From NCBI RefSeq assembly GCF_016862975.1, contig NZ_BONZ01000080.1, forward strand, positions 1 to 64,000: DNA of 64,000 nt, in the 5' to 3' direction. Below, one piece after another: positions 2,458 to 16,384 of the stretch. Under the pieces are notes generated by a model. It was not told where the DNA came from, did no database searches, and saw only the letters and a list, made by a program, of their open reading frames with translations. Each line of letters begins with the position of its first letter. Within the stretch, counting starts at the first letter, position 1. Source of the stretch: Rugosimonospora africana. GTDB taxonomy: Bacteria > Actinomycetota > Actinomycetes > Mycobacteriales > Micromonosporaceae. The position numbers were made by a program, and so were the translations under genes.

Positions 2458-2927
2458 GCCGGGCCAAGGCGACGTCTACGGCGATTCGGTGTCGGTGGGA
2501 GCTGAGGATCGGATCTGTAGCAAGGGCCGCTGGGACAGTCGCCGTGCCTCATCTGGCTTGACGCAGAAAGGTGAGGGTGAGGTCGATACCTTCGACCTCA
2601 CCCAGCCAGCGTTCGGTTCGGCTTGCGGTCACCGCGTAAGAAGGCCGCAGTCCAGTTCGTCGAGCCCACTGATCTTCTGTAGCAGCGGTCATCTGGCTTA
2701 CATGATCGACAGGACAGAACCTCGACGCCGAACCAGGGGATTGAACGACATCCCGACGTGGCGCCCTGCCTCGCTGCTCGTCCGCCCGGTCCGCGAAGAA
2801 CGCGGCGCAGGTCGTCCAGGCCGATCCGGCCGGTGACGTTGGCGCCGGGACATGTCCTCGGCGCGGTCTGGGCCGCAGCTCCGGCCGGAACAGGAAATCC
2901 CGATCATGGGCGTTGCCCTTCCAGTTA
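2458..2927. other. Gene-free stretch
   Basis: The 470 bases between the ankyrin gene and the lactonase operator hold no gene I can support. Short open frames exist on both strands, but none has a ribosome-binding site or recognisable protein. They may be decayed coding DNA. The promoter of the downstream lactonase operon probably lies at the right end. Confidence 0.5.
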
Positions 2928-2956
2928 GATGTCGTGTAACTTAATGACACGACATC
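2928..2956. promoter_or_regulatory. Perfect palindromic operator of the lactonase-MarR operon
   Basis: GATGTCGTGT at 2928-2937 and ACACGACATC at 2947-2956 form a perfect 10-bp inverted repeat with a 9-bp AT-rich spacer, ending 35 bp before the lactonase start. MarR dimers typically bind such elements, and a MarR-type regulator is the second gene of the operon, so autoregulation is inferred. Confidence 0.72.
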
Positions 2957-2991
2957 GATTACGACGTCGAGCCTTGAAGGAGCACGTCTTC

Positions 2992-3870
2992 ATGAACTCG
3001 GACCCGATCCGCCGCGTATCCGTGGTCAGTACCGGCACCGTCGCCATTCACCCCGAGCACGTCGGCCCGACGTGGAAGCCGCTGTACTGGTGGCTGTTCA
3101 CGTCGCGGCGGTGGACGCCGCCCCGGCCCATCAACGCCTACGTCATCGAGCACCGCGAGGGCCTCGTCCTGTTCGACACCGGCCAGGACCGCGCCTCGGT
3201 CACCGACCCGAACTACTTCCCCAAGGGGCTCAACGGGCTCGTCTACGACCGCCTCGCGAAGTTCGCCATCGAACCCCACGAAACCCTCAACGCCCGACTT
3301 CACACCCTCGGCCACGACATCGCCGACGTGCACACCGCGGTGCTGTCCCACCTACACCAGGACCACATCGGCGGTCTCCCCGAACTCGCGGGCCGCAACA
3401 CCACCATCGTCACCACCCCGGCCGAGTGGCAGGAGATGATGCGCCCCTCACCCGAACCACGGGGATTCCTGCGCTCACACATCATCCTGCCCCGGCTGCG
3501 GTGGCAGCAGATCCAGCCCGAACCGATCAACGACCCCGACCTCGGTCCCTTCACCAGCGGGCACGACCTGTTCGGCGACGGCGCCATCGTGCTGCTTCCG
3601 ACCCCCGGCCACACACCCGGATCCCTGTCCATGCTGGTACGCCGGCCCGGGCGACCGCCGCTGCTGATGGTCGGCGACCTGACCTACGACGCCCGCCTCC
3701 TCGCGGCAGGCAACATCCCCGGCGCCGGCAACCGCCGACAGATGCGCGACACCATCGGGATGGTCAACACGCTGCGACAGCGACACCCCGACCTCGTCGT
3801 CCTCGCCGCACACGACCCCAACGCCGCCAACCTCCTCGCCACCGTCCAGAACGCATCCGTACAACGATGA
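2992..3870 (+). CDS. MBL-fold lactonase-like hydrolase (AHL lactonase family)
   Basis: A 292-aa metallo-beta-lactamase-fold hydrolase. The zinc motif H120-L-H122-Q-D124-H125 is intact. A downstream PTPGHTPGS supplies the next His and VGDLTYD the bridging Asp, the pattern of N-acyl homoserine lactonases and related lactonases. The N-terminal half has the typical NAYVIEH...LVLFDTGQ strands. The open frame starts at 2929, but AAGGAG at 2977-2982 places translation at the ATG at 2992, outside the upstream palindrome. It lacks a signal peptide and so should be cytoplasmic. It overlaps the MarR gene by ATGA. The substrate could be a signalling lactone or another lactone or ester; family membership is solid, specificity is not. 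Confidence 0.85.
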   Translation: MNSDPIRRVSVVSTGTVAIHPEHVGPTWKPLYWWLFTSRRWTPPRPINAYVIEHREGLVLFDTGQDRASVTDPNYFPKGLNGLVYDRLAKFAIEPHETLNARLHTLGHDIADVHTAVLSHLHQDHIGGLPELAGRNTTIVTTPAEWQEMMRPSPEPRGFLRSHIILPRLRWQQIQPEPINDPDLGPFTSGHDLFGDGAIVLLPTPGHTPGSLSMLVRRPGRPPLLMVGDLTYDARLLAAGNIPGAGNRRQMRDTIGMVNTLRQRHPDLVVLAAHDPNAANLLATVQNASVQR

Positions 3871-4340
3871 CCCCGGCCGAGGAACTGCGATACCTGATCC
3901 TCGCGATCCAACGCGAGGGCAACCGCCTCTACGCCGCCGACCTCCGACCACTGGACCTGACACCCTCACAGGCCGAAACGCTCCGCGTGCTGGCCGATCA
4001 TCAACCGCTGAGCGTGAGCGGGCTGGGTGAGCTGCTGGTCTGCGAGACCGGCGACAACCCCAGCCGACTCGTCGACCGACTCGTCCGGACCGGGCTGATC
4101 AACCGCGAACCCGACCCGACCGACCGACGCCACGTCACCCTCACCCTCACCCCCGCCGGCAGCGAACTCGCCCGCCGGGTGGCCACCGTCGAGGAACGCC
4201 TGCACCACACCATCGAAACCCTCATCACCGGCCAACCCGTCGAACCGACCCTCGCGCTGCTGCGGACGTTGGCCAACGCCTTCCCCGCCGGCCAGGCCCT
4301 CGCCCGTCGGCGGGAACACCGCAAGGGGAGGCCATCGTGA
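3867..4340 (+). CDS. MarR-family transcriptional regulator
   Basis: A 157-aa winged-helix regulator: helical N-terminus, a recognition region around SGLGELLVCETGDNPSRLVDRLVRTGL, and the wing motif DPTDRRHVTLTLTPAG that is diagnostic for MarR. It starts at the ATG overlapping the lactonase stop (ATGA), so the two are co-translated. The likely role is ligand-responsive repression of its own operon through the palindrome at 2928-2956, with the lactonase degrading the inducer; this is inference. The only Cys visible lies in the DNA-binding region (LLVCETG), so redox sensing cannot be excluded. Confidence 0.88.
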   Translation: MTPAEELRYLILAIQREGNRLYAADLRPLDLTPSQAETLRVLADHQPLSVSGLGELLVCETGDNPSRLVDRLVRTGLINREPDPTDRRHVTLTLTPAGSELARRVATVEERLHHTIETLITGQPVEPTLALLRTLANAFPAGQALARRREHRKGRPS

Positions 4341-4422
4341 CCGGCCGGCCGCCCCGACGCGGCTGACGGTCGCGCCACACCACAACCCCGCGACCCACAA
4401 CAATCGAATCAAGGAGCGCATG

Positions 4423-4851
4423 ATGGCACGGTTCAGCAACGACCTTCTGATTCAGCGTCCCGTGGATGCGGTGTTCGCGTACCTGTCCGACCTGGAAAAC
4501 CTGCCGAGATGGAACTACGCGATCCGCCAGACTCGCCGGATAGGTACCGGCCCGATCGGCGTCGGAACAGTCTATCGACAGGTCCGCACCCTGCCCCACC
4601 CGATGGAAGAATCCCTCGAAATCACCGAGTTCGCACCCAACCGCCGCCTCGTCATACACGGCGGGTTGGGCGTGTTCGACGGCAGCCTTACATACCTGCT
4701 AGAGCCGACGAACGACGCCACCCGACTGATTAACGAGATCGAACTCACGGGCCGAGGCGCCCGAGGCGCTCTCGCAGGCATAGCAAAGCATTCCGTCAAA
4801 CAAGCCGTGGCGCAGAACCTGGAAGTATTGCGAAACCTCCTGGAGAGGTGA
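4423..4851 (+). CDS. SRPBCC (polyketide cyclase/dehydrase-like) protein
   Basis: A 142-aa protein of the START/SRPBCC helix-grip fold. The opening FSNDLLIQRPVDAVFAYLSD followed by LENLPRWN is typical of the polyketide-cyclase/dehydrase-2 group, with a later ITEFAPNRRLV strand and a C-terminal amphipathic helix. These proteins bind hydrophobic ligands in a central cavity; no catalytic residues are conserved across the family. AAGGAG at 4411-4416 has better spacing to the second ATG (4423) than to the one at 4420. It follows the MarR gene after 82 bp and probably belongs to the same unit. Confidence 0.82.
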   Translation: MARFSNDLLIQRPVDAVFAYLSDLENLPRWNYAIRQTRRIGTGPIGVGTVYRQVRTLPHPMEESLEITEFAPNRRLVIHGGLGVFDGSLTYLLEPTNDATRLINEIELTGRGARGALAGIAKHSVKQAVAQNLEVLRNLLER

Positions 4852-5136
4852 GGTGCCAGCCGGGTAGGCCAGTGCACCGCCGCCGACCCCGGGCGGGATG
4901 GGTGCGCACGTGCGTGCAAACTGCCCCACACGCTCCTCCCTCACGTGGGTGCCCTGTGATCGTCTCGGACACAAACCGCAGCTCAACGGTCGAACTGAAT
5001 CGGCCTGCAGCGGTGCGGTTTGAGGTCCTGCTCGTGCCCAAGCGCGGTCACCCAGCGGCGGGAGACCGGCACGTGGTCGGCGCGGGTGAGGTAAGCGCCA
5101 GCGTCCGGCCACGGCCGGTCCGGACACATCCGCAAT

Positions 5137-5805
5137 TCAATCGCCGAGCAGTATTGCGGCGACCGCCTCCGGGGCCTCGTGCATCGCGTCGTGTCCGGTG
5201 GGAAGGTCGTGGACCTGCCAGTCGGGATCGGCTTCGAGTCGGGCACGGAGTTCAGCGAACGGCGTCCGGTCTTCCCATCCCGAGCAGTAGACGAACTCCC
5301 GACGGGGCACGCGGCCGGCGGCGCCGGTGAGCCGGATCGTTTGCAGGAACGAGGCGAGGGGATGGGGACGGCGGCGGGGATCGCCGCCGTCCGGCGGTCG
5401 GACCGCGTAGCCGGTAGCCGCGGCGCCGGCAGCAACCACGTCCCGGAAGTACTCGTTCGCTGACGACCACCACGACTCGCCATCGCGCGGTACGAAGGCG
5501 TCGAGATGCACCAGTCGGGAGATCCGACCGTCGGCGCGATCGGCGGCGGCGGCGATCACCATCCCGGCGTAGCTGTGACCGACCAGCGTCGCGCTGGCGA
5601 TGTGGTGGCGGTCGAGGTGCCGCAACACGTCGTCGGCATGCGTGTCGAGGTTGGCGGTCGCGACCGTCGCGGTGTCGTCGTCTGGCGCCAGACCGGTCAG
5701 GGTCAGGGCGTGAACAGTATGACCAGCACGCTCCAGCAGCGGAACCACCGCCTCGAACGCCCAGGAGCCCTTCCAAGCGCCGGGCACAAGGACGAACGTC
5801 GCCAT
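5137..5805 (-). CDS. Alpha/beta hydrolase (EstC/salicylate-esterase-like)
   Basis: A 222-aa alpha/beta hydrolase on the minus strand. It has the oxyanion-loop motif LVPGAWKGSWAF at residues 6-17, the nucleophile elbow GHSYAG with Ser78, and a C-terminal LPTGHDAMHEAPEAV carrying the catalytic His. This arrangement matches the plant methylesterase-like/EstC group of small carboxylesterases. The frame is open from 5895, but GGGAG six bases before the ATG at 5805 sets the start. The 285 bp between it and the SRPBCC gene, which is convergent, hold nothing I recognise. The substrate is unknown; a small ester is expected from family precedent. Confidence 0.87.
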   Translation of the reverse strand: MATFVLVPGAWKGSWAFEAVVPLLERAGHTVHALTLTGLAPDDDTATVATANLDTHADDVLRHLDRHHIASATLVGHSYAGMVIAAAADRADGRISRLVHLDAFVPRDGESWWSSANEYFRDVVAAGAAATGYAVRPPDGGDPRRRPHPLASFLQTIRLTGAAGRVPRREFVYCSGWEDRTPFAELRARLEADPDWQVHDLPTGHDAMHEAPEAVAAILLGD

Positions 5806-6187
5806 GCGTTTCTCCCTCTCTCCAGCCGCGGCATCGAGGCACGCCGCCCCGATGACATGTGGTTCGGTCGGGCGCTGTGCGCGACCGAAGATCACCGCGT
5901 GGAGAAAGTGTCACCGGATCAAGGTGTGGCTTACTACCGTTAGAACGCCAACCAATGCCCGTTTGCCGCCAAGCTTGCCGAATCGCCGGAGTGAGGTCGG
6001 TCGTCTGGCGAGCCGTTCCGTGAGGTGCCGTCTCCGGTTGGCTGGGATCGACCCAGCCGTAGACGCGGGGGAGTGCCGGTGGGTCGATCGCGCCGGTTGG
6101 TCCTGCCTGCAGCCAGACGGTGCCGTCGTGGTTGACCTGCAACAGGACGAGGCCGATGTCGTACTTTCTCGGCGTGTGCCGCACGTT
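5806..6187. other. Degenerate sequence, possible gene fragment
   Basis: About 380 bases upstream of the hydrolase without an intact gene. On the minus strand, about 6199 down to 5945, one frame reads like real protein (for example YDIGLVLLQVNHDGTVWLQ) but lacks a start and runs into the hydrolase upstream region in the wrong context. It may be a relic of an unidentified gene whose 5' end was lost at the junction near 6190. Confidence 0.35.
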
Positions 6188-6689: not shown

Positions 6690-7180
6690 GCGACCCGACG
6701 CTTTTGCGGTGAGCCTTCTGATCGGCGCGTTCAGCGAGACGGGCCGGCGCGACCAGACTCGAGATACGTGATGTGGCGTCCGGTCTTGGAATCGGTGCAC
6801 TGCGCACGCAGCGGGCAGGCGGGTCCGAAGTCGGCCTTGCCGGCGTTGCGGGGTGGCCACTGACCGCACGGATCGGGATCGTGACGCCGCCCGGGCACGT
6901 GACCTGCTGGTATTGCAGGTCGATGTCGAACTGGTCTTTGGTGAACTTCTCGCCCGGCGCGTTGGGTGCTTGCGCTTTCGTCTTGACGTCGATCCCCGCC
7001 TGGGGAGTTGGTCGAGCATCTCGCCGGTGCCGTAAGCGCAGTCGCCGTAGACCGCCGCGGCGTGGGTGGCCGCGGCCTGGTCGTGGCCGGGCTCTAGCAG
7101 GTCGGCGATCAGGTCCGGGGCCGGGTCGGCGTCGCGGTGTTGCCCGCCGTCACCGCGCGGGCTGCTGGCGGTGGCGGTGG
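6690..7180 (-). pseudogene. IS1182-family transposase relic
   Basis: Read on the minus strand, three frames together give pieces of an IS1182-type DDE transposase: VTAGNT, then DADPAPDLIADLLEPGHDQA and AVYGDCAYGTGEMLDQL, then KTKAQAPNAPGEKFTKDQFD with DIDLQYQQVTCPGGVTIPIR. These match the order in intact members, but at least two frameshifts separate them, and both the N-terminal half and the C-terminal domain are absent. No terminal inverted repeats were found. It shows past insertion activity between the response-regulator relic and the next genes. Confidence 0.75.
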
Positions 7181-7659: not shown

Positions 7660-8154
7660 ATGACATCTACGTCAGAGCAGCGGGGACAGGCAGCGCGGCC
7701 ACGTCGCCGGAAAGGCATGCGAGCGCGAGCGTTGGTGGCTGTTCCGCTCATGTCGCTACTGGGTTCGATTGCTATCACCGGGACGGCGGCGGCCGCAGCC
7801 ACGCCCACGTCGCCCCAATCCACTGCCGCTCCCCACTCGGTGCTGCCCGTCGGCGCGATCGAGGCCGGGACGGGCATGCAACCCGACACCAATCAGGTGG
7901 GTTGCTACGTCGGCGACGACTTCTGGGACATGAAGATCAGCGGGACTTGGTACTGCTGGGCCAACAACGGCTCGGTCGATATCTACCCAAAGTACTACGA
8001 CGTGTCCAGGATCTACACGCACAACAACTCGGGGACAGTCTGGTACTACAGCCCGACCGGCGGCGTCATCAGCGACAACCTCGCCGATTGGACGAACTAC
8101 GTCTTTGACGGCTACGACCTGGAGGTTACCGGGTTCACGATCACCGGTCGCTGA
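7660..8154 (+). CDS. Small secreted protein, beta/gamma-crystallin-like
   Basis: A 164-aa exported protein. Residues 1-48 form a long signal peptide: basic stretch ARPRRRKGMRAR, hydrophobic core, then TAAAAATP with likely cleavage after an AxA-type site. The mature part of about 110 residues has two Cys (VGCYVGDDFW and WYCWANNG), so one disulfide is possible, and many aromatic and Gly residues in beta-prone segments (TVWYYSPTGGVISDN). This resembles the small beta/gamma-crystallin fold of Streptomyces metalloproteinase inhibitor and killer-toxin-like proteins, but I would not assign a function. GAGGGG before the ATG at 7660 is preferred over the upstream in-frame start at 7570, which would put residues before the signal peptide. 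A hairpin follows at 8222. Confidence 0.8.
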   Translation: MTSTSEQRGQAARPRRRKGMRARALVAVPLMSLLGSIAITGTAAAAATPTSPQSTAAPHSVLPVGAIEAGTGMQPDTNQVGCYVGDDFWDMKISGTWYCWANNGSVDIYPKYYDVSRIYTHNNSGTVWYYSPTGGVISDNLADWTNYVFDGYDLEVTGFTITGR

Positions 8155-8238: not shown

Positions 8239-8405
8239 TGTTTCTTGAACGGTGTTTCCGGCGATCTTGTTAGTAGGTTTCAGCGGCCGGGAATCGGTCG
8301 CTGAAGGTAATAGCGAACGCGTTCAACGCTGGCTTCCAGCGCATCGCCGCGTATGCCCAGACGCGGCCTTGTGCTCGTTGGCCGCCCAGAGTGAGTGGAG
8401 GACAA

Positions 8406-8585
8406 GTGATCAAGACGCTGGAGAAGCTCGGGGACCGGCTGCTCGGCCGTGTGGTACCCCAGGTGACCGCCAGGGCCAACCCGCCTCAGTGTCCCTGGTA
8501 CTGCGGCTGCAAATTCGGCTATCTTGCCTACTCCCAAAACGCGATAGGCTCGTGCGGCAGGTGCGGTACCAGCTATACCTGCTGA
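8406..8585 (+). CDS. Six-cysteine precursor-like peptide (59 aa)
   Basis: GGAGG at 8396-8400 precedes the GTG at 8406. The 59-residue product has an amphipathic, Cys-free N-terminus (MIKTLEKLGDRLLGRVVPQV) ending in T-A-R-A at residues 21-24, an AxA signal-peptidase-type site. The remaining 35 residues carry all six cysteines (29, 33, 35, 50, 53, 59) in the pattern CPWYCGC...SCGRCGTSYTC, rich in Gly, Tyr and aromatic residues. It is directly followed by MauE-like, thioredoxin-like, ABC exporter and S26 peptidase genes. I infer a leader-plus-core precursor whose core is oxidised to three disulfides, exported and cleaved after Ala24: a bacteriocin or other secreted peptide. The TARANPPQC junction and gene order are seen; activity and connectivity are unknown. 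A small zinc-ribbon protein is the alternative reading, but the leader and neighbours argue against it. Confidence 0.85.
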   Translation: MIKTLEKLGDRLLGRVVPQVTARANPPQCPWYCGCKFGYLAYSQNAIGSCGRCGTSYTC

Positions 8586-8591
8586 CTGTCG

Positions 8592-9164
8592 ATGGATTAC
8601 GTCGGTCTTGCCTGTGCCGTCGCACTGGCCGGAGTGTTCTTCGTTTCCGTGCGGGGCAAGCTCGGCGGGAGTCGCTTCCGGGTCTTTGTGGCCACGGCGG
8701 GCCCGCTAGACCTTCTCCCGCGGAAATGGCGCGGGAGGGCCGCAACGGCGGCGACGGTGGCCGAGTCGGCCACCGTCGCGGCTTTGGTGGCGGGTGGGGT
8801 CATGGCTGTCCTCGGCGCCGGGCGGGCGGTGTTGCTGCTCGGTTTTCTCGGCGCCGCGGTTCTGCTGCTGGTCTTCACCATCGCCATCGGCGTCCTGCTG
8901 CGGCGGGGCGAGCGTGCGCCCTGCCACTGTTTCGGGGTGCGGGACACGCCGCTGGGGCTCGCCCAGGTCGTGCGCAACGTGCTCCTGCTCGCGCTGGCGG
9001 TCACCGGACCCCTGGCCGCGGGAGGCGGCGGGTACGCCGCCCCGGGGGTCGTGTTGGCGGTGGTCGCCGGTGCACCGATCGCGGCGCTCCTGGTTCTTTT
9101 CGACGATCTGGTCGCCCTGTTCAGGATTGCCCCGCCGCGGGATGCGGTGGGAAACCGTCGGTAG
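8592..9164 (+). CDS. MauE/DoxX-like redox membrane protein
   Basis: A 190-aa integral membrane protein with about four hydrophobic spans. An N-terminal span is followed by a GKL segment, as in MauE (RGKLGGS), and a CHCFG motif lies between the third and fourth spans (RAPCHCFGVRDTPLG), in the place of the CGCFG of MauE. MauE works with MauD in forming the disulfides of the methylamine dehydrogenase small subunit. Here the likely client is the six-cysteine peptide encoded 6 bp upstream, with electrons or disulfides exchanged with the downstream thioredoxin-like protein. The start is the ATG at 8592, six bases after the peptide stop, so the genes are coupled. Family assignment is good; the client is inferred. 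Confidence 0.82.
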   Translation: MDYVGLACAVALAGVFFVSVRGKLGGSRFRVFVATAGPLDLLPRKWRGRAATAATVAESATVAALVAGGVMAVLGAGRAVLLLGFLGAAVLLLVFTIAIGVLLRRGERAPCHCFGVRDTPLGLAQVVRNVLLLALAVTGPLAAGGGGYAAPGVVLAVVAGAPIAALLVLFDDLVALFRIAPPRDAVGNRR

Positions 9165-9180
9165 TCGGTAGGAGCCCTTG

Positions 9181-9723
9181 ATGCTGTTTGTCATCGCCGC
9201 GCTGGTGCTGTTCGGCGCGCTGGTGGTCGTCAACCTGGTCCTCACGCTGGGCATCGTCCGGCGGCTGCGTGAGCACGCGGATCTCATCGGCAAGGCGCTC
9301 AGCGGCGAGGCGGCAGAGGATCCTGACGCAGGCTACTTCATCATGCGGGCCGGATCGCCGTTGCCCGCGTTCTCCGCCACCACAGTGGACGGTGCCGTCG
9401 CGCCGAACACCGGGCCGCTGCTGATCGGGTTCTTCTCGTCGACCTGCTCCGCCTGTGTGCAGCGCCTGCCGGGCTTCATTGAGTACGCCAAGGCATTCGA
9501 CGGCCGCGTGCTGGGGGTGGCCGTCGGCATGCCGAAGGACGTCCGCGGCATCATCGAGGACATGCGTCCGGTGGCCGATGTCGTCACGGAACTGGAAGAG
9601 GGGCCGCTCGCCAAAGCCCTGAAGGTCGAGGGACTGCCAGCGATGGCCACGGTCGACGCGGACGGAATCGTGACGGCGAGTGGGTACCGCCTGGAGGCGC
9701 TATTGACCCATACCACTGTATGA
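9181..9723 (+). CDS. Membrane-anchored TlpA/MauD-like thioredoxin
   Basis: A 180-aa protein with one N-terminal membrane span (residues 2-25) and an extracytoplasmic thioredoxin-like domain. The segment FFSSTCSACVQRLPGF carries the CxxC active site C89-S-A-C92, and the cis-Pro region is EGLPAMATVD. MauD and TlpA family members have this layout and act on disulfides outside the membrane. GGAG ten bases before the ATG at 9181 sets the start. The stop overlaps the ABC gene start (ATGA). With the MauE-like protein it should catalyse disulfide formation or isomerisation in the peptide encoded at 8406. Confidence 0.85.
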   Translation: MLFVIAALVLFGALVVVNLVLTLGIVRRLREHADLIGKALSGEAAEDPDAGYFIMRAGSPLPAFSATTVDGAVAPNTGPLLIGFFSSTCSACVQRLPGFIEYAKAFDGRVLGVAVGMPKDVRGIIEDMRPVADVVTELEEGPLAKALKVEGLPAMATVDADGIVTASGYRLEALLTHTTV

Positions 9724-11585
9724 ACGGTACGAAGGGGCGGCCCGCGCGGCGCGGTGGCACCAGAATCACCGGAGAAGTCGCCGAGGCGCTGGGGGTGGCC
9801 TGGCGCGCCGCGCCGGCGGTGCTGGCCGGCTATGTGGTGGCCAGCGTGCTGGGCGGTCTGGTCCCCGTCCTGGCCACGTGGCTGACCAAGCTCGCGCTCG
9901 ACCGCATCGGTGCCGGCACCGGCGGGGTGCTGGCGCCAGCCGCCGCGCTGGCCGGGTGCGGTCTGCTGGGGGCCATGCTCGCTCAGGCCGCGAAGTATCT
10001 GCGGCTCGAACTCGACCGCCGCGTCGGGCTGCATACCCGCGACCGCCTCTACGCTGCCACCGGGCGGCTGCGTGGGCTGGCCCGGTTGGAGGATCCGGCC
10101 TTCCAGGACCGGCTGCTCATGGCGCAGGAGCACAGCCGCATCGGCCCGACCGCGGTGGTCGAAGGCGTCCTGGGCGCCGCACAGTCGGGCCTCACTCTGG
10201 TCGGCTTGCTGGCCGCGCTGACCACGCTGAACTGGCTGATGGCACCCATCGCAGTGATCGCCGCTCTCCCGGCCTTGGCCACGGAGCTGCGGCTGAGCCG
10301 AATCCGCGCAAAGGCGATGAAGGGAATCACCCCGGCCCAGCGCCGCGAGATGTTCTACGCCGATCTGCTGAGCAGCCTAGAGGCGGCTAAGGAGGCCCGG
10401 CTGTTCGGGCTCGGGCCGCTGTTCCGCCGCCGAATGCTCGCCGAACTCGGTTCTACGAACGCCGTACGCCGGGCCCTGGACCGGCGCGAGTTCGCCGCCC
10501 AGGGCGCCCTCGGCGTGCTGAGCGCGGCTGTCACCGGTGGCGGGCTGGTCTGGGCGGTGCTGGCCGCACGCGCTGGGCGGCTGACGGTGGGAGACGTGTC
10601 CGTGTTCGTCACCGCCGTCGCCGGGGTGCAGGGCGCGCTGGGCACCGTCATCGACCGGCTGGCCGCGGCGCACAACGCCCTGCTGCTGTTCGGCCACTAC
10701 CGCGCCGTGGTGCGGGCGGAGCCGGACCTGACCGAGCCCGCGCAGCCGGTGCCGGTGGGCCCGCTGCGCCGCGGCATCGAGTTCTGCGACGTGTGGTTCC
10801 GCTACAGCGAAGGTCACCCGTGGGTGCTGCAAGGCGTCAATCTGCACATCCCCTTCGGGCGGTCGGTAGCGCTGGTGGGACGCAACGGGGCTGGCAAATC
10901 CACCCTGGTCAAGCTCCTGTGCCGGTTCTACGACCCGACGCGCGGTGCGGTGCTGTGGGACGGCGTGGACCTGCGCGACCTGTCCGTGGCCGAGCTGCGC
11001 CGCCGGATCGGCGCGGTCTTCCAGGACTTCATGTCCTACGAGCTGAGCGCGCGGGAGAACATCGAGCTCGGCGGTGTCGATGGCGCGGACGACATCGGCG
11101 GCGGGCGAGGCGACGGAGTCGAGTTGGCCGCGCGTCGGGCCGGCGTGCACGACCTGCTCTCCGGGCTGCCCCGCGGCTACGACACGCTGCTGTCGCGGAT
11201 GTACTTCGACTCCGAGGACAAGGCCAACCCCGACACCGGGGTGCTGCTCTCGGGCGGGCAGCGGCAGCGCGTCGCGCTGGCGCGGGCGTTCCTGCGCGAC
11301 GCCCGCGACCTGCTGATCCTCGACGAGCCCGCCTCCGGTCTGGACGCCGAGGCCGAGCACGCGATCCACACCGAGCTGGCCGCGCACCGCGCCGGACGCA
11401 CCAGCGTGCTCATTTCGCACCGGCTCGGCTCGGTCCGCGACGCCGACCAGATCGCCGTCCTGGCAGAGGGGCAGGTAACCGAGCTGGGCAGTCACGAGGA
11501 GCTACTTGCCGCCGAGGGCATCTATGCGCGGCTGTTCCGGCTACAGGCCAGCGGATACGACACTCGGGTTGGGGCAACGGAATGA
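9720..11585 (+). CDS. ABC exporter, fused TMD-NBD, no C39 peptidase domain
   Basis: A 621-aa half-transporter with six membrane spans in residues 25-300 and an ATPase domain in 340-610. The NBD has Walker A GRNGAGKST (about 386-393), signature LLSGGQRQRVALARAF (about 508), Walker B LLILDEPASGLD (about 530) and the switch region LISHRLGSVRDAD. It would act as a homodimer exporting the peptide encoded at 8406. Unlike classical bacteriocin exporters it has no N-terminal C39 Cys protease; a separate S26 peptidase gene follows with ATGA overlap and would take over leader removal. ATPase motifs are intact. The cargo is inferred from gene order. Confidence 0.92.
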   Translation: MNGTKGRPARRGGTRITGEVAEALGVAWRAAPAVLAGYVVASVLGGLVPVLATWLTKLALDRIGAGTGGVLAPAAALAGCGLLGAMLAQAAKYLRLELDRRVGLHTRDRLYAATGRLRGLARLEDPAFQDRLLMAQEHSRIGPTAVVEGVLGAAQSGLTLVGLLAALTTLNWLMAPIAVIAALPALATELRLSRIRAKAMKGITPAQRREMFYADLLSSLEAAKEARLFGLGPLFRRRMLAELGSTNAVRRALDRREFAAQGALGVLSAAVTGGGLVWAVLAARAGRLTVGDVSVFVTAVAGVQGALGTVIDRLAAAHNALLLFGHYRAVVRAEPDLTEPAQPVPVGPLRRGIEFCDVWFRYSEGHPWVLQGVNLHIPFGRSVALVGRNGAGKSTLVKLLCRFYDPTRGAVLWDGVDLRDLSVAELRRRIGAVFQDFMSYELSARENIELGGVDGADDIGGGRGDGVELAARRAGVHDLLSGLPRGYDTLLSRMYFDSEDKANPDTGVLLSGGQRQRVALARAFLRDARDLLILDEPASGLDAEAEHAIHTELAAHRAGRTSVLISHRLGSVRDADQIAVLAEGQVTELGSHEELLAAEGIYARLFRLQASGYDTRVGATE

Positions 11586-12031
11586 CGATTGTGCTGGTGG
11601 GACTGGCGGGACTGCTCGTGCTGGCGGCACTGGCCGTCGCGGCGGTGCGCTGGGCGGCCGGCCGCTGGGTCGCGGTCACCGTGACCGGCGACAGCATGGC
11701 GCCCGCGTTCGCCGACGGGGACCGGGTCCTCGTCCGGCGCTCGCCTCTGGAACGACTGACCGTTGGCAACGTGGTCGTCGTCTCATGGCCGACTCTTCAC
11801 CACTCCTACCAGCCCGGATCCGACCGCCCATGGCTGATCAAACGCGTCGCCGCGCTGCCCGGCGACCCCGTGCCGGACTCGGTGTCCGCCGCCGCCGGTC
11901 GTGAGATCCACGTGCCCCCGCGCCATCTCGTCCTGCTCGGTGACAACTCCGAGGGCAGCCTCGACTCCCGAACCTTCGGATGCATTCCCGGCGACCTGGT
12001 CCTCGGCGCGGTTGTCAGACGCCTGCGCTGA
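11582..12031 (+). CDS. S26-family signal peptidase dedicated to the peptide cassette
   Basis: A 149-aa type I signal peptidase-like protein with a single N-terminal span (residues 3-22). It carries the catalytic serine motif GDSMAP (Ser38), the catalytic lysine in IKRVAALPGDP (Lys87), and the C-terminal box LGDNSEGSLDSRTFG. Both dyad residues are present, so it should be active at the outer face of the membrane. It is short compared with housekeeping LepB, as expected of a specialised enzyme, and is the last gene of the five-gene unit. The AxA site at residues 22-24 of the peptide encoded at 8406 is a plausible substrate. Confidence 0.9.
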   Translation: MTIVLVGLAGLLVLAALAVAAVRWAAGRWVAVTVTGDSMAPAFADGDRVLVRRSPLERLTVGNVVVVSWPTLHHSYQPGSDRPWLIKRVAALPGDPVPDSVSAAAGREIHVPPRHLVLLGDNSEGSLDSRTFGCIPGDLVLGAVVRRLR

Positions 12032-12979: not shown

Positions 12980-13159
12980 GCGAATTCTCGCGCCCTGCTC
13001 TTGCAAAGGTCCCAAAAATAGGGAAGTTCGACGATCTTCTTGACGGATACATCCAATGTTTGGTTGAGTGCTGAGGAGCAGCCAGCGATGTCTGGACAGC
13101 CGACCAAGGAAGGTCGGCGTGAGGGCAGTCGGGGCTCTGAAACCTTCGAGAGGAGCACG

Positions 13160-16100
13160 ATGAAGTCCGCTCGTTCGATCGCCATACTCGCCGGCGGCCT
13201 AGCGCTCGCCTGGATCGTCTCCGGATTGACCGTGCCGAGCAGAGCCGCGGCCGACACTCCAGCCAGCTATTACGTCTCGACAACCGGGAGCGACAGCAAC
13301 GACGGCAGCATCGACGCCCCGTTCGCCACCCTCGCGAAGGCCCGCGACGCCGTCCGCGCGCTGAGCACAGACACGGGGCTGCCTGCCGGAGGCGTCAACG
13401 TCTACCTCCGCACCGGCACGTACACGCAGACGAGTTCCTTCGCCCTTACCGCAGCGGACTCGGGAACTGCCACAGCGCCGATCACATACCAGGCCTACCC
13501 CGGAGAGCGGGTGCGCATCACCGGCGAGAAGCGGCTCAACAGCGGCCTGTTCACCAATGTCACGGATCCTGCGATCCTGAATCGCCTCGACCCGTCCGTG
13601 CGCTCTTCCGTGCTGCAGACCTCACTGAAGCCGCAGGGCGTCACCGACTACGGCACGATTGCGAACTACGCTTACGACAACCCGGCAGTAGCGTCACCGC
13701 CGCAGCTCGTCCAGGGAGACACGCTGCAGACGCTGGCCCGGTGGCCGAACACCGGGTACACAACCATGGGCACCGTTTCGGCTACGACCGGAAACCCAGT
13801 GTTCGCCTACACGGATCCGCGCCCCTCCACCTGGGCCACCCCCAACGACGCCAGGATCGCAGCGTTCCCGAACCAAGACTGGGCATTCCAGACCTTCCAG
13901 ATCGACAACGTAAACACCTCGACCTCGACCATCAGCGCCTCTCCGGCATCCGAGTTCGGCACGAAGACCGGTGCGCGGTACTACTACTTCAACGTCCTCG
14001 AGGAACTGGACACACCGGGCGAGTGGTACCTCGATCGATCGACGGGCATCCTCTACGTAATCCCGGCGACTCCCATCACCCAACAGCCGTACAGCCTGAC
14101 GATGTTGAACACGCCGCTCATGACTATGACCGACACCTCCTACGTGACGGTCAAGGGGCTCAACTTCTCCGGCTCCAACGGAACGGGTGTCGCCATCACC
14201 AATGGAAACCACGTTCTCGTCACCGGGTGCACGTTCCAGGCTCTGGGGTTGAAGGCCGGGACGATGGACGGCGGAAGTTACTCTGGCTTCTCCGACAACG
14301 TTGTGCACGACACCGGAAGCGGCGGCTTTAGCATCGGCGCCGGGAACCTGGCGACGCTCCGGCCCGGCAACCTGTTCGCCACGAACAACGACATCTATCG
14401 CTACGCCACGAGGTATCAGACCTATTCCGCCGCAATCCAGGTGTACGGGGTTGGGAATCGGATCAGTCACAACAAAATCCATGATGCGATCCATCTGGCG
14501 ATCAAGATCTCGGGCAACGACCAGATCATCGAGTACAACGACATCTATAACGTGGTGACCAACACTGCGGACTCCGGGGCGATCTACTCCGGACGCGACT
14601 GGACCCAGCAGGGGACGGTGATCCGTTACAACTACCTGCACGATCTGGGTCAGGGCTCGAACGACGACGTCGGCATCTACCTCGACGACATGGAGAGCGG
14701 CCAGTACGTCTATGGCAACGTCTTCGAGAACCTTCCGACGGCGATCAAACACAGCGGTCGCGACAACAACATCGAGAACAACATCATGATCAACGTCAAG
14801 AAGCCCGTGCTAATCGGCAACTGGGGCTCGGTCTTCGCCGGTCCGGGCGGTCCCCTCGTGACAGAGCTGAAGGCCGTGCCCTACCAGGCCGACCCGTGGC
14901 TGACCCGGTATCCGCACCTGGCCAACATCCTCAACGACCAGCAGACGCTTCCGAAATACAACTCCATCACGAAGAACGTCTACGTCGGATCGGGCAGCCC
15001 GGACATCGTCTCCACGACGAACGGGACCTCGGCCGAGGCCAACATCAACGACTGGCCGACCAAGAGCGTCTCGGACGTCGGCTTCGTGAACGCAGCCGCG
15101 CACGACTACGACCTGACGAGCGACGCGGCAGTCTTCACCAAGGTCCCCGGCTTCCAGGCCATTCCGTTCGGCAAGATCGGCATCGTCGACTCGTCGCAGA
15201 TCGGGACGTTCACCGACCCGGTCGCTGTAGCCAGTGCGCAGCTGCACTTCTCCGACGACGCCATCAGCTCCGCAGGCTCCACGACCGGACGTGCCATGGT
15301 GATGGCCGAAGACGCGCAGGGGGATCTCCTCGACGCATACGCGAACACCACCTTCTCCTCGTCCGATCCTGCGCTCGCGACGATCGCGGCGAGCGGCTAT
15401 CTCAACAACGTGGCGACCGGAACGTCGACGATCAGCGCACAGGTCACCCTGAACGGCGCCACCGTAACGGCGACAAAGAACCGCAACGTCGTCGGCTCGT
15501 TGGTGAAAACCTTCGGCTTCGGCGTCTCGAACCCGGTGGCGACCGTCGGCAGCGACGCGAACATCTCGCCGTCAGTGCTCATGACCGACGGGAGCACGAC
15601 GCCGCTGCCGGACGGCTCGATCATTTACAGCAGCGAGGACCCCACGGTCGCGACCGTCTCCGGCAAAGTCCTGCACCCAGTCGCGCCGGGTATGACCCGC
15701 ATCGTTGGCCAAGCGACCTACAACGGCCAGACGACCCGCTCCACCATCTACATCCTGGTGCAACCTGTCGGCGGAGCACCCCTTCCCTCGGGTTGGTCGC
15801 TGACCAACTACGGCACAGCGAAGGGCGGCCTTGTCTGGAACAACGGGCAGCTGGTCGAGATGAGCGACGGCAAGAACGTCTACGGTACGGCCGACGATTT
15901 CACCTTCGTGCACACGACGGCGACATCCACCCAGACCACCGTCGAGGCCACGGTGGAGGATCTCGCCCAGCTCAACGACAACGTCGCCGCCGGCATCATG
16001 ATCCGCGATCACGACGCCGCGGACTCCAAGGAGGTGAGCCTTCGCGTCACTCCGAGTGCCACCTTCTTCATCTGGCGCACGGACGACGGCGGGGCGACAT

Positions 16101-16384
16101 CGTTCGTCAACCGGACGTCAGGTCAGCTCCCCACCGCCCTCAAGATCGTGCGCAACGGTGACACCTTCACCGGGTACTTCAAGTACGGCACCGACACATG
16201 GGTGCCCGTTGGTTCAGCAACGGTATCGATGGGGAGTACGACGATGGCTGGTACCGCGATGTTCTCCAAGGGACCCAGCACAGCGACGATCGCTCGCTAC
16301 AGCAACGTGATCGTCGATGACACGGCCCTCCACCCGGTGTCGCTCGCGGCCCGAGCGAAGCACCCCACAACACCCCACCACTGA
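13160..16384 (+). CDS. Secreted right-handed beta-helix carbohydrate-active protein
   Basis: A 1074-aa exported protein. The Sec signal peptide (residues 1-32, ending SRAAADT) follows GAGAGGAG before the ATG at 13160; the upstream in-frame start at 13040 would bury the signal. Mature residues open with YYVSTTGSDSNDGSIDAPFA, the N-terminal signature of right-handed beta-helix polysaccharide-degrading enzymes. Beta-helix coils rich in Asn follow (NHVLVTGCTFQ, NNDIYRYAT, NRISHNKIHDA, NIENNIMIN). The next part contains Ig-like BIG2-type repeats (DPALATIAASGYLNNVATGT; DPTVATVSGKVLHPVAPG), then a C-terminal lectin-like/DUF1349-type region with FTGYFKYGTDTWVPVG. It resembles GH141-like and related beta-helix families, but I cannot choose one. 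It probably makes the oligosaccharides that the importer at 24307 takes up. Confidence 0.85.
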   Translation: MKSARSIAILAGGLALAWIVSGLTVPSRAAADTPASYYVSTTGSDSNDGSIDAPFATLAKARDAVRALSTDTGLPAGGVNVYLRTGTYTQTSSFALTAADSGTATAPITYQAYPGERVRITGEKRLNSGLFTNVTDPAILNRLDPSVRSSVLQTSLKPQGVTDYGTIANYAYDNPAVASPPQLVQGDTLQTLARWPNTGYTTMGTVSATTGNPVFAYTDPRPSTWATPNDARIAAFPNQDWAFQTFQIDNVNTSTSTISASPASEFGTKTGARYYYFNVLEELDTPGEWYLDRSTGILYVIPATPITQQPYSLTMLNTPLMTMTDTSYVTVKGLNFSGSNGTGVAITNGNHVLVTGCTFQALGLKAGTMDGGSYSGFSDNVVHDTGSGGFSIGAGNLATLRPGNLFATNNDIYRYATRYQTYSAAIQVYGVGNRISHNKIHDAIHLAIKISGNDQIIEYNDIYNVVTNTADSGAIYSGRDWTQQGTVIRYNYLHDLGQGSNDDVGIYLDDMESGQYVYGNVFENLPTAIKHSGRDNNIENNIMINVKKPVLIGNWGSVFAGPGGPLVTELKAVPYQADPWLTRYPHLANILNDQQTLPKYNSITKNVYVGSGSPDIVSTTNGTSAEANINDWPTKSVSDVGFVNAAAHDYDLTSDAAVFTKVPGFQAIPFGKIGIVDSSQIGTFTDPVAVASAQLHFSDDAISSAGSTTGRAMVMAEDAQGDLLDAYANTTFSSSDPALATIAASGYLNNVATGTSTISAQVTLNGATVTATKNRNVVGSLVKTFGFGVSNPVATVGSDANISPSVLMTDGSTTPLPDGSIIYSSEDPTVATVSGKVLHPVAPGMTRIVGQATYNGQTTRSTIYILVQPVGGAPLPSGWSLTNYGTAKGGLVWNNGQLVEMSDGKNVYGTADDFTFVHTTATSTQTTVEATVEDLAQLNDNVAAGIMIRDHDAADSKEVSLRVTPSATFFIWRTDDGGATSFVNRTSGQLPTALKIVRNGDTFTGYFKYGTDTWVPVGSATVSMGSTTMAGTAMFSKGPSTATIARYSNVIVDDTALHPVSLAARAKHPTTPHH

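What the first reader, a model, noticed from the sequence alone, without database searches (positions are those of the whole stretch)
8406..12031. Five-gene cassette for a disulfide-rich secreted peptide: candidate undescribed RiPP/bacteriocin-type system
Seen: a 59-aa peptide with a Cys-free amphipathic leader ending in an AxA site and a 35-aa, six-Cys core; then MauE-like (CHCFG), membrane-anchored CxxC thioredoxin-like, fused ABC exporter and S26 signal peptidase genes, all tightly coupled (6 bp gap, 16 bp gap, ATGA, ATGA). Known: MauE and MauD act in disulfide formation of methylamine dehydrogenase; peptide exporters often carry a C39 protease. Inferred: here oxidation is done by a MauE/TlpA pair and cleavage by a dedicated signal peptidase. 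I know of no named class with exactly this set, though no search could be run.
Basis: partly seen in the sequence, partly recalled or inferred. Interest (0 to 1): 0.9.

Follow-up and report, generated by a model that had tools for sequence, protein, structure and literature searches.

The report
Actinomycete disulfide-peptide export cassette
A five-gene cassette in soil actinomycetes appears to make, oxidise, export and trim small cysteine-rich peptides whose front end is conserved while the active part varies widely, which points to a large, almost unstudied family of secreted disulfide peptides, possibly antimicrobials.

Summary
Window 8406-12031 holds a 59-aa precursor (24-aa Cys-free amphipathic leader ending in ARA, 35-aa six-Cys core), then MauE, membrane-anchored CxxC thioredoxin-like, ABC exporter without C39, and S26 peptidase genes, tightly coupled. 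It belongs to a large family. The leader (M.[RK].[LI]..LGDRLL...VP...A.A) was found in 173 distinct precursors, mostly beside the same machinery, in Streptomyces, Amycolatopsis, Lentzea, Kribbella, Nonomuraea, Micromonospora and others. In 297 genomes of one family, precursor and exporter co-occur in 127; 4 have only the precursor, 16 only the exporter, 150 neither. Cores vary in sequence and Cys spacing, yet 169 of 173 have an even number of cysteines (4-12). The MauE CxC, TlpA CxxC and S26 Ser/Lys are essentially invariant. SARP-like regulators lie near about half of the loci. Best reading: a leader-guided, ABC-exported, extracytoplasmically oxidised and S26-trimmed disulfide-peptide system, probably bacteriocin-like. 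Chemistry and activity are untested. Part of the family was probably flagged before: decRiPPter (2020) names three uncharacterised mauE candidate RiPP families with Cys-rich precursors. No curated family or functional description was found in the searches listed.

The parts
8391..8405 (+). ribosome-binding region (GTGAGTGGAGGACAA) before the GTG start
   Evidence: sequence
8406..8477 (+). leader peptide, 24 aa, MIKTLEKLGDRLLGRVVPQVTARA, Cys-free, amphipathic, ends in ARA
   Evidence: family alignments; no Sec-like hydrophobic segment, and 2% of its own shuffles reach its hydrophobic moment
8478..8585 (+). core peptide, 35 aa, six Cys, plus stop codon
   Evidence: sequence; family-wide even Cys count
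8592..9164 (+). MauE-like membrane redox protein; CxC (CHC) at 8922-8930
   Evidence: PF07291 E 2.3e-19; CxC in 95 of 95 distinct homologues aligned
9181..9723 (+). TlpA/thioredoxin-like protein, N-terminal membrane anchor, CSAC at 9445-9456
   Evidence: AhpC-TSA, Thioredoxin and Redoxin matches below cut-off; CxxC in 113 of 113 distinct homologues aligned; TM-like segment
9720..11585 (+). fused ABC exporter (transmembrane + ATPase), no C39 peptidase domain
   Evidence: PF00005 1.3e-29; best NCBIfam model is MsbA-related, below its cut-off; homologues in cassettes
11582..12031 (+). S26 signal-peptidase-like protein, one N-terminal TM-like segment; catalytic Ser at 11693-11695, Lys at 11840-11842
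   Evidence: PF10502 3e-20 and TIGR02227 2e-20, both over cut-off; Ser in 112 of 112 and Lys in 111 of 112 distinct homologues

Best explanation
This is one copy of a large actinomycete system that makes secreted disulfide-bonded peptides. The conserved amphipathic leader of the ribosomal precursor is recognised by the dedicated ABC exporter (inferred). On the outer face of the membrane the MauE/TlpA-like pair oxidises the core cysteines so that all are paired (inferred; shown are even cysteine number and conserved redox motifs). The co-encoded S26 peptidase, active site outside, cuts after the conserved AxA to release the core (inferred; shown are the conserved AxA and Ser/Lys). It replaces the double-glycine leader plus C39 peptidase of ordinary peptide exporters. 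The released peptide is most likely a bacteriocin- or defensin-like competition factor under specialised-metabolite control (inferred from hypervariable cores, neighbouring SARP-like regulators and multiple precursors per genome).
For: Co-occurrence: of 79 exporter-led loci scanned, 59 have all five genes and 72 a precursor hit; of the other 7, four are cut by contig ends, two have a leader-like peptide, one has none. Of 60 peptide-led regions that I chose down the rankings, 34 of 40 and 19 of 20 have at least two of the four machinery genes. Genome level: 127 both, 4 precursor only, 16 exporter only, 150 neither, Fisher p about 1e-59 (genomes are related). Leader: in a 40-row alignment Ala24 is invariant and Pro18 and Ala22 are in 90% or more. 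Core: even Cys in 140 of 141 distinct precursors of the first set, 29 of 32 new ones of a second set, 102 of 105 Cys-spacing patterns. Catalytic residues essentially invariant. SARP-like regulators near 60 of 128 loci against about 5% expected.
Against: No product, mass, disulfide or activity was measured. Four precursors have an odd Cys number (L128, L190, two at L196). Seven of 60 peptide-led regions lack two machinery genes (L151, L158, L163, L184, L194 none; L160 S26 only; L173 a weak distant ABC only). Some loci lack MauE, including the own-genome cassette L012; L087, L115, L140, L182, L195 and L202 show neither redox gene although their cores have four Cys, so local MauE/TlpA is not indispensable. 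sviE/sviF-type genes proved dispensable for lasso disulfides (PMC9266682, passages). No immunity gene common to the family was recognised, though frames under 100 aa were not compared. The direction of electron flow is not shown. The window cassette has no SARP-like neighbour. The AF2 model of the window precursor is poor (pLDDT 57.5).
Confidence: 0.75

Rival explanations
1. Secreted signalling or developmental peptides: the same export and oxidation, but the core acts as a cell-cell signal or surface peptide in mycelial development and not as an antimicrobial.
For: Wide spread in mycelial actinomycetes, rare in a thin sample across the phylum (3 of 396 at E 0.001); SARP neighbours do not tell a signal from an antibiotic; no common immunity gene recognised.
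Against: Core hypervariability (26% mean identity outside aligned Cys) and several different paralogues per genome are unusual for a signal that must match a receptor; among the recurrent neighbours a histidine kinase-like protein appears at only 5 loci.
Confidence: 0.2
2. Metal-binding (zinc-ribbon or metallothionein-like) peptide with the redox proteins keeping its thiols reduced.
For: Even cysteine numbers and occasional CxxCG motifs would also fit metal ligands; TlpA-type proteins in cytochrome maturation act as reductants (recalled).
Against: Counts of 6 and 10 are common and not multiples of four; only 29 of 137 cores have two or more CxxC; the cassette has an exporter and a signal peptidase; among 40 precursors the only zinc-finger match is one member at E 0.016.
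Confidence: 0.07
3. S26 is not the leader peptidase; the peptide is exported whole or cut by a general signal peptidase, and S26 acts on another substrate.
For: S26 is missing or divergently placed in some loci; general type I signal peptidases also cut AxA sites, and the cinnamycin leader is recalled to end in an AxA-type motif.
Against: S26 present in 71 of 79 exporter-led and 34 of 40 peptide-led loci, with Ser/Lys kept, next to a conserved AxA.
Confidence: 0.15
4. A thioether or azole RiPP in which the cysteines are modified by an unrecognised enzyme, with the redox pair playing a side role.
For: Cys-rich cores with Ser/Thr are typical RiPP substrates.
Against: No LanB/C/M/K, YcaO or radical SAM family among the cassette proteins or the nine window neighbours scanned; the flanking families were looked at by eye only and none looked like one; even Cys number is not needed for such chemistry.
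Confidence: 0.06

Closest known systems
decRiPPter mauE/mauD candidate RiPP families (PMC7794033, 2020)
   Same: Streptomyces clusters with mauE, one also with mauD, and predicted precursors with at least 8 Cys; the authors also infer a role in precursor modification (passages; part of section 7)
   Different: Named only as candidates in one paragraph; leader, S26, exporter, even-Cys rule, SARP link and spread beyond Streptomyces do not appear in what was read ('signal peptidase', 'S26' and 'thioredoxin' do not occur in the main text); the S2 table of sequences was not open to me, so identity is likely but unproven
Class I lasso peptide clusters with sviE (DoxX) and sviF (thioredoxin-like), PMC9266682
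   Same: A membrane redox protein paired with a CxxC thioredoxin-like protein beside a Cys-containing precursor (passages)
   Different: Lasso clusters need B1/B2/C enzymes and have sviD1-D4 transporters; two disulfides in a short threaded core; deletion of sviF or of mslE or mslF did not abolish the product
Sublancin-type glycocins
   Same: Dedicated thiol-disulfide oxidoreductases for a disulfide peptide (named in the review passages)
   Different: They use a glycosyltransferase and a C39 peptidase-exporter with a double-glycine leader (recalled); neither was found here
Actifensins of Actinomyces (PMC6989792)
   Same: Variable disulfide peptides of 37 aa with a leader and ABC genes; about 6 Da lost (passages)
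   Different: Cleavage motif GA followed by Glu, subtilisin-like protease, LuxR regulator; 'thioredoxin' and 'peptidase' do not occur in the main text
Laterosporulins (Brevibacillus)
   Same: Top Foldseek matches of the 8-Cys subfamily model are 6lwy and 4ozk, with 6lwz at rank 10
   Different: E 0.39 or worse and Z 2.4 or less, tied with unrelated proteins at Z 2.3; 4ozk is titled leaderless
TMcins (PMC13252029)
   Same: Leader removal, disulfide formation and ABC export at the membrane by dedicated proteins (Results, part 1 read)
   Different: Transmembrane product, S2P-type protease, DsbA-family oxidase, a different type of ABC transporter

Membership tests
RiPP (broad sense) | ribosomal precursor with conserved leader and variable core next to processing genes | tested here: met
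RiPP (broad sense) | enzymatic post-translational modification of the core | not testable with these tools
   redox genes and even Cys suggest disulfides; no product measured
Double-glycine leader / C39 exporter bacteriocins | GG-type cleavage site | tested here: not met
   Ala at the last leader position in 40 of 40 aligned precursors, AxA in 14 of 14
Double-glycine leader / C39 exporter bacteriocins | C39 peptidase domain on the exporter | tested here: not met
   no C39 match in Pfam to the window exporter
Sec-secreted peptide | hydrophobic signal-peptide core | tested here: not met
   window leader: no TM-like segment, mean hydrophobicity -0.06
Lanthipeptide, thiopeptide or YcaO RiPP | LanB/C/M/K, YcaO or radical SAM gene | tested here: not met
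   none among the cassette proteins and nine window neighbours scanned
Class I lasso peptide | B1/B2/C lasso enzymes | tested here: not met
   none among the cassette proteins and nine window neighbours scanned
Glycocin | glycosyltransferase plus oxidoreductases | tested here: not met
   no glycosyltransferase among the cassette proteins and nine window neighbours scanned
decRiPPter mauE candidates | mauE homologue beside a precursor of at least 8 Cys in Streptomyces | tested here: inconclusive
   part of the family fits; the published precursor table was not open to me
Defensin-like bacteriocin (laterosporulin, actifensin) | defensin-type fold | tested here: inconclusive
   Foldseek E 0.39, VIA Z 2.4 for one subfamily; window model too poor
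Zinc ribbon | two conserved CxxC knuckles | tested here: not met
   29 of 137 cores have two or more CxxC
Methylamine dehydrogenase maturation (mau) | mau structural genes nearby | tested here: not met
   only MauE itself matches in the Pfam scans of the cassette and nine window neighbours

The most novel reading that the evidence does not exclude
A distinct class of leader-guided disulfide peptides: one exporter-oxidase-signal-peptidase module, keyed by a conserved 24-residue amphipathic leader ending in AxA, delivers almost any core with paired cysteines. It has diversified like a venom-peptide library into a hundred or more disulfide frameworks across mycelial actinomycetes, with a precursor in 131 of 297 sampled genomes of one large family.
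Probability: 0.55. Interest if true: 0.85.

Novelty: new variant of a known kind. Interest (0 to 1): 0.76.

Why it matters
If true, actinomycetes carry a large and barely studied reservoir of ribosomal disulfide-rich peptides; in the four annotated plasmid records looked at, all five precursors are called 'hypothetical protein'. The leader motif makes them minable, and the module could serve to make disulfide peptides in Gram-positive hosts. It also makes concrete questions testable: how a MauE/TlpA pair oxidises exported peptides, and how a dedicated S26 peptidase replaces C39 in an ABC export route. The Streptomyces clavuligerus plasmid copy (L186) offers a laboratory organism.

Tried and rejected
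Zinc-ribbon, mau-pathway, lanthipeptide, lasso and glycocin readings were considered and set aside (membership table).

Fold of the window core: AF2 on A5 gave pLDDT 57.5, unusable. The 8-Cys subfamily model (A6, mean pLDDT 71.1, leader blocks 52, core blocks 79-87) gave laterosporulins as top but non-significant matches; kept only as a lead. No PDB sequence matches the precursor profile at E up to 1. PHROGs gave nothing for 5 precursors; NCBIfam and Pfam gave only isolated weak hits among 40 (best E 0.0033 and 0.016). Plasmid tblastn with the window precursor found nothing.

Parity null: background ORFs of the same loci with at least 4 Cys in the last 45 residues are 67% even (1021 of 1525), so 0.67 was used as a stricter null beside 0.5; against it the first set gives p about 2e-23 and the second set 0.002. 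Related sequences are not independent; counting spacing patterns lessens this. The profiles reward cysteines in certain columns but not parity. The second set was gathered after the rule was seen, partly from genomes already sampled, and one of its rows (from G171) had been in the search profile.

My first cleavage-site rule cut at the first AxA and was replaced; that second pattern itself mostly demands Ala at -1, so its Ala counts are not independent evidence, and I cite the alignments instead. 4 of the 141 precursors had no site by it (an AxA is visible in them) and were left out of the leader counts. Leader identity was measured without gaps and core identity with gaps, which favours the core.

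Rows dropped before counts: one false precursor hit at L122 (3082), except in the distance count, which includes it; L095 (3,053 bases) not scanned; loci shorter than 3,300 bases not scanned; MauE and TlpA pieces under 130 aa and exporter pieces under 500 aa left out. L173's exporter match is weak and distant, and its precursor (6 Cys) is the seventh in the no-redox group; without it 6 of 6 no-redox precursors have 4 Cys against 6 of 151 with MauE or TlpA. These share similar cores and are not independent, and absence means absence within the stretch scanned.

The regulator cluster is a blastp component; at least one member (L066) looks by eye NB-ARC-like without the SARP start, so 60 of 128 is approximate. 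BTAD was confirmed in 7 of 7 members scanned. The baseline comes from nine cassette-bearing genomes, eight of one family.

Literature: ten searches ran. Beyond the papers opened (PMC7794033, PMC9266682, PMC8442711, PMC7168211, PMC13252029, PMC10885120, PMC6989792; outline, passages or parts only) I saw listings. PMC7794033 is the only one seen to connect MauE with precursor peptides in this sense; a few listed papers with one MauE mention were not opened.
Full report
WHAT IS THERE. The window (contig C80 of an 11.1 Mb genome) holds, on the + strand, a 59-codon gene (8406-8585) and four coupled genes to 12031. Gaps are 6 and 16 bp, then two 4-bp overlaps. Pfam and NCBIfam name MauE, weak thioredoxin-like families, an ABC exporter and an S26 signal peptidase; the precursor matches nothing. 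The exporter has no C39 match. By simple hydropathy MauE has four hydrophobic segments (one long enough for two helices), the TlpA-like and S26 proteins one N-terminal segment each, and the precursor none.

PARALOGUES IN THE SAME GENOME. The exporter has close paralogues on contigs C30 (57%) and C45 (56%) and a more distant one on C85 (46%). Beside the C30 and C45 copies lie three short frames with the same leader: two in tandem at C30 and one at C45. Their leaders follow the window's pattern; the cores differ (window 6 Cys, C45 8, C30 10 and 10). No MauE was found beside the C45 copy in the 10 kb fetched. A further precursor with nine Cys lies on C36, with TlpA-like and S26 genes about 0.7 and 1.4 kb away on the other strand. 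The C85 copy has a different, longer 8-Cys peptide.

SPREAD. A profile of the four precursors found 13 of 296 genomes of the class at E 0.01. One is the own genome. Ten loci in eight genomes of one family (f18) were judged real by eye from the leader; the hits in the other four genomes (G002, G090, G187, G218) looked spurious. A thin sample of the whole phylum gave 3 of 396 at E 0.001: the own genome, one real-looking locus (G018, L191) and one with stop codons inside. So the family is concentrated in some lineages. Exporter homologues also lie on 29 plasmid records, 26 of them Streptomyces, 16 of these S. clavuligerus. The four records that I opened hold cassettes. In the S. clavuligerus record two tandem precursors are annotated 'hypothetical protein', followed by 'MauE/DoxX family redox-associated membrane protein', 'hypothetical protein', 'ABC transporter ATP-binding protein' and 'S26 family signal peptidase'; an S. 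atratus plasmid adds a BTAD regulator.

CO-OCCURRENCE. In 79 scanned exporter-led loci (80 less one too short) MauE occurs in 65, TlpA in 73, S26 in 71, a precursor hit in 72, and all five in 59. Of the seven without a hit, four are cut by contig ends (L100, L101, L130, L143), two have a 53-aa leader-like peptide (L094, L097) and one (L126) has none. In peptide-led regions 34 of 40 and 19 of 20 have at least two machinery genes; I chose these regions down the hit rankings, three came from genomes whose precursors were rows of the profile, and they are not a random sample. In the exporter-led loci and the first 40 peptide-led regions, 118 of 126 precursor hits lie within 1 kb of a machinery gene, median 118 bp (one false hit included; loci without any machinery gene not counted). 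At genome level precursor and exporter agree in 277 of 297 genomes: 127 both, 150 neither, 4 precursor only, 16 exporter only.

LEADER AND CORE. In a 40-row alignment the Ala at leader position 24 is invariant, and Met1, Leu13, Pro18 and Ala22 are in 90% or more. Among the 137 of 141 distinct precursors in which my pattern found a site, the leader is 24 aa in 116; Pro at -7 in 123, Arg at -14 in 111, Asp at -15 in 108; Cys-free in 136. 74 of 116 leaders have a hydrophobic moment within the top 5% of their own shuffles. Cores run from 22 to 51 aa. Mean pairwise identity is 45% in leaders and 38% in cores, 26% once aligned cysteines are left out. Cys makes up 19% of core residues.

EVEN CYSTEINES. 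In the first set 140 of 141 cores have 4, 6, 8, 10 or 12 Cys; the exception (L128) has 7. A second set gathered afterwards gave 29 of 32 new distinct precursors even; the exceptions are at L190 (9) and L196 (7 and 7). Over both sets 102 of 105 distinct Cys-spacing patterns are even (p about 1e-14 against a null of 0.67). Free thiols, or a chemistry using cysteines singly, would not give this; complete pairing would. That is inference from counts, not a measured disulfide.

MACHINERY. Alignments of distinct homologues show CxC in 95 of 95 MauE, CxxC in 113 of 113 TlpA-like, and Ser in 112 and Lys in 111 of 112 S26 proteins. Loci with exporter and S26 but neither redox gene in the stretch (L087, L115, L140, L182, L195, L202) all have four-Cys cores; four-Cys cores also occur with the redox genes. 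This is consistent with greater need for the oxidases in more complex cores, but the sequences are related, and the genomes may carry the genes elsewhere.

REGULATION AND NEIGHBOURS. A SARP-like regulator lies within 3.5 kb of the hits at 60 of 128 loci; BTAD was confirmed in 7 of 7 scanned. Nine genomes hold 336 BTAD matches in about 84.5 Mb, so about 5% would be expected in a 12-kb span. The window cassette has none. The next recurrent families are an ABC ATPase at 10 loci, a MarR/HxlR-like regulator at 7 and a histidine kinase-like protein at 5 (named by eye); the ABC ATPase could be an immunity exporter at those loci. Frames under 100 aa were not compared, so small immunity proteins would have been missed.

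STRUCTURE. For an 8-Cys subfamily AF2 predicts a leader helix (residues 4-23, low confidence) and three strands in the core (pLDDT 79-87 in the core blocks). The top PDB matches are laterosporulins, not significant (E 0.39; Z 2.4, with unrelated rows at 2.3). For the window peptide the model is too poor to use.

HOW IT MOST LIKELY WORKS. Shown: the gene set, its co-occurrence, the leader, AxA, even cysteines and conserved catalytic residues. Inferred: leader recognition by the exporter, oxidation outside by TlpA with MauE passing electrons on, cutting by S26, and a competitive role. Rivals are listed; signalling is the strongest for function and a general signal peptidase for cleavage.

PRIOR WORK. 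decRiPPter (PMC7794033; part 2 of section 7 read, passages) names three mauE candidate families with precursors of at least 8 Cys, without characterisation. sviE/sviF in lasso clusters are a partial precedent, and dispensable there (PMC9266682, passages). The review of RiPP leader proteases PMC10885120 has no occurrence of 'signal peptidase', 'S26' or 'AxA' in its main text. Nothing else was seen in the ten searches; the library holds open-licence PMC papers only.

VERDICT. Real, conserved, widespread, with a plausible mechanism resting on genomic evidence only. Rated a new variant of a known kind (exported leader peptides with disulfides) because the parts are known and one paper flagged what is probably part of it; interest 0.76.

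Noticed in passing
L014 (G000:C85), 2644-5879: Divergent cassette (MauE, TlpA, ABC at 46% identity) with an 8-Cys peptide whose leader differs from the family; no S26 hit in the stretch fetched.
   Followed up: partly
L162, 5079-10950: Seven different six-Cys precursors around one cassette, an array of diverging cores.
   Followed up: partly
L158, L163, L173, L184, L151, L194: Precursors or precursor arrays without a cassette nearby, three of them (L158, L163, L173) next to a SARP-like regulator; possibly served in trans by cassettes elsewhere in the genome.
   Followed up: no
L196, 3683 and 7589: Two precursors of one locus with seven Cys each, exceptions to the even rule; could form a heterodimer.
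   Followed up: no
L190 (G000:C36), 6816-6998: Further precursor of the window's own genome, with nine Cys, beside TlpA-like and S26 genes on the other strand; no exporter hit in the 14 kb fetched.
   Followed up: partly
L036, L092, L135, L142, L159, L162, L163, L165, L180, L184: An ABC ATPase of one blastp family lies near these 10 loci; candidate immunity exporter, named by eye.
   Followed up: no
window 7660-8154: Gene just upstream for a 164-aa protein with a signal-peptide-like start and a weak beta/gamma-crystallin match (E 0.0084, below cut-off); a small protein with a similar start also lies beside the C45 cassette (L012 1572-2045).
   Followed up: no
L187, L188, L189: Cassettes on Streptomyces plasmids with integrase or transposase genes in the same stretch, suggesting mobility.
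   Followed up: partly
window 13040-16384: Large protein with a beta-helix domain (PF13229) after the cassette, apparently unrelated to it.
   Followed up: no
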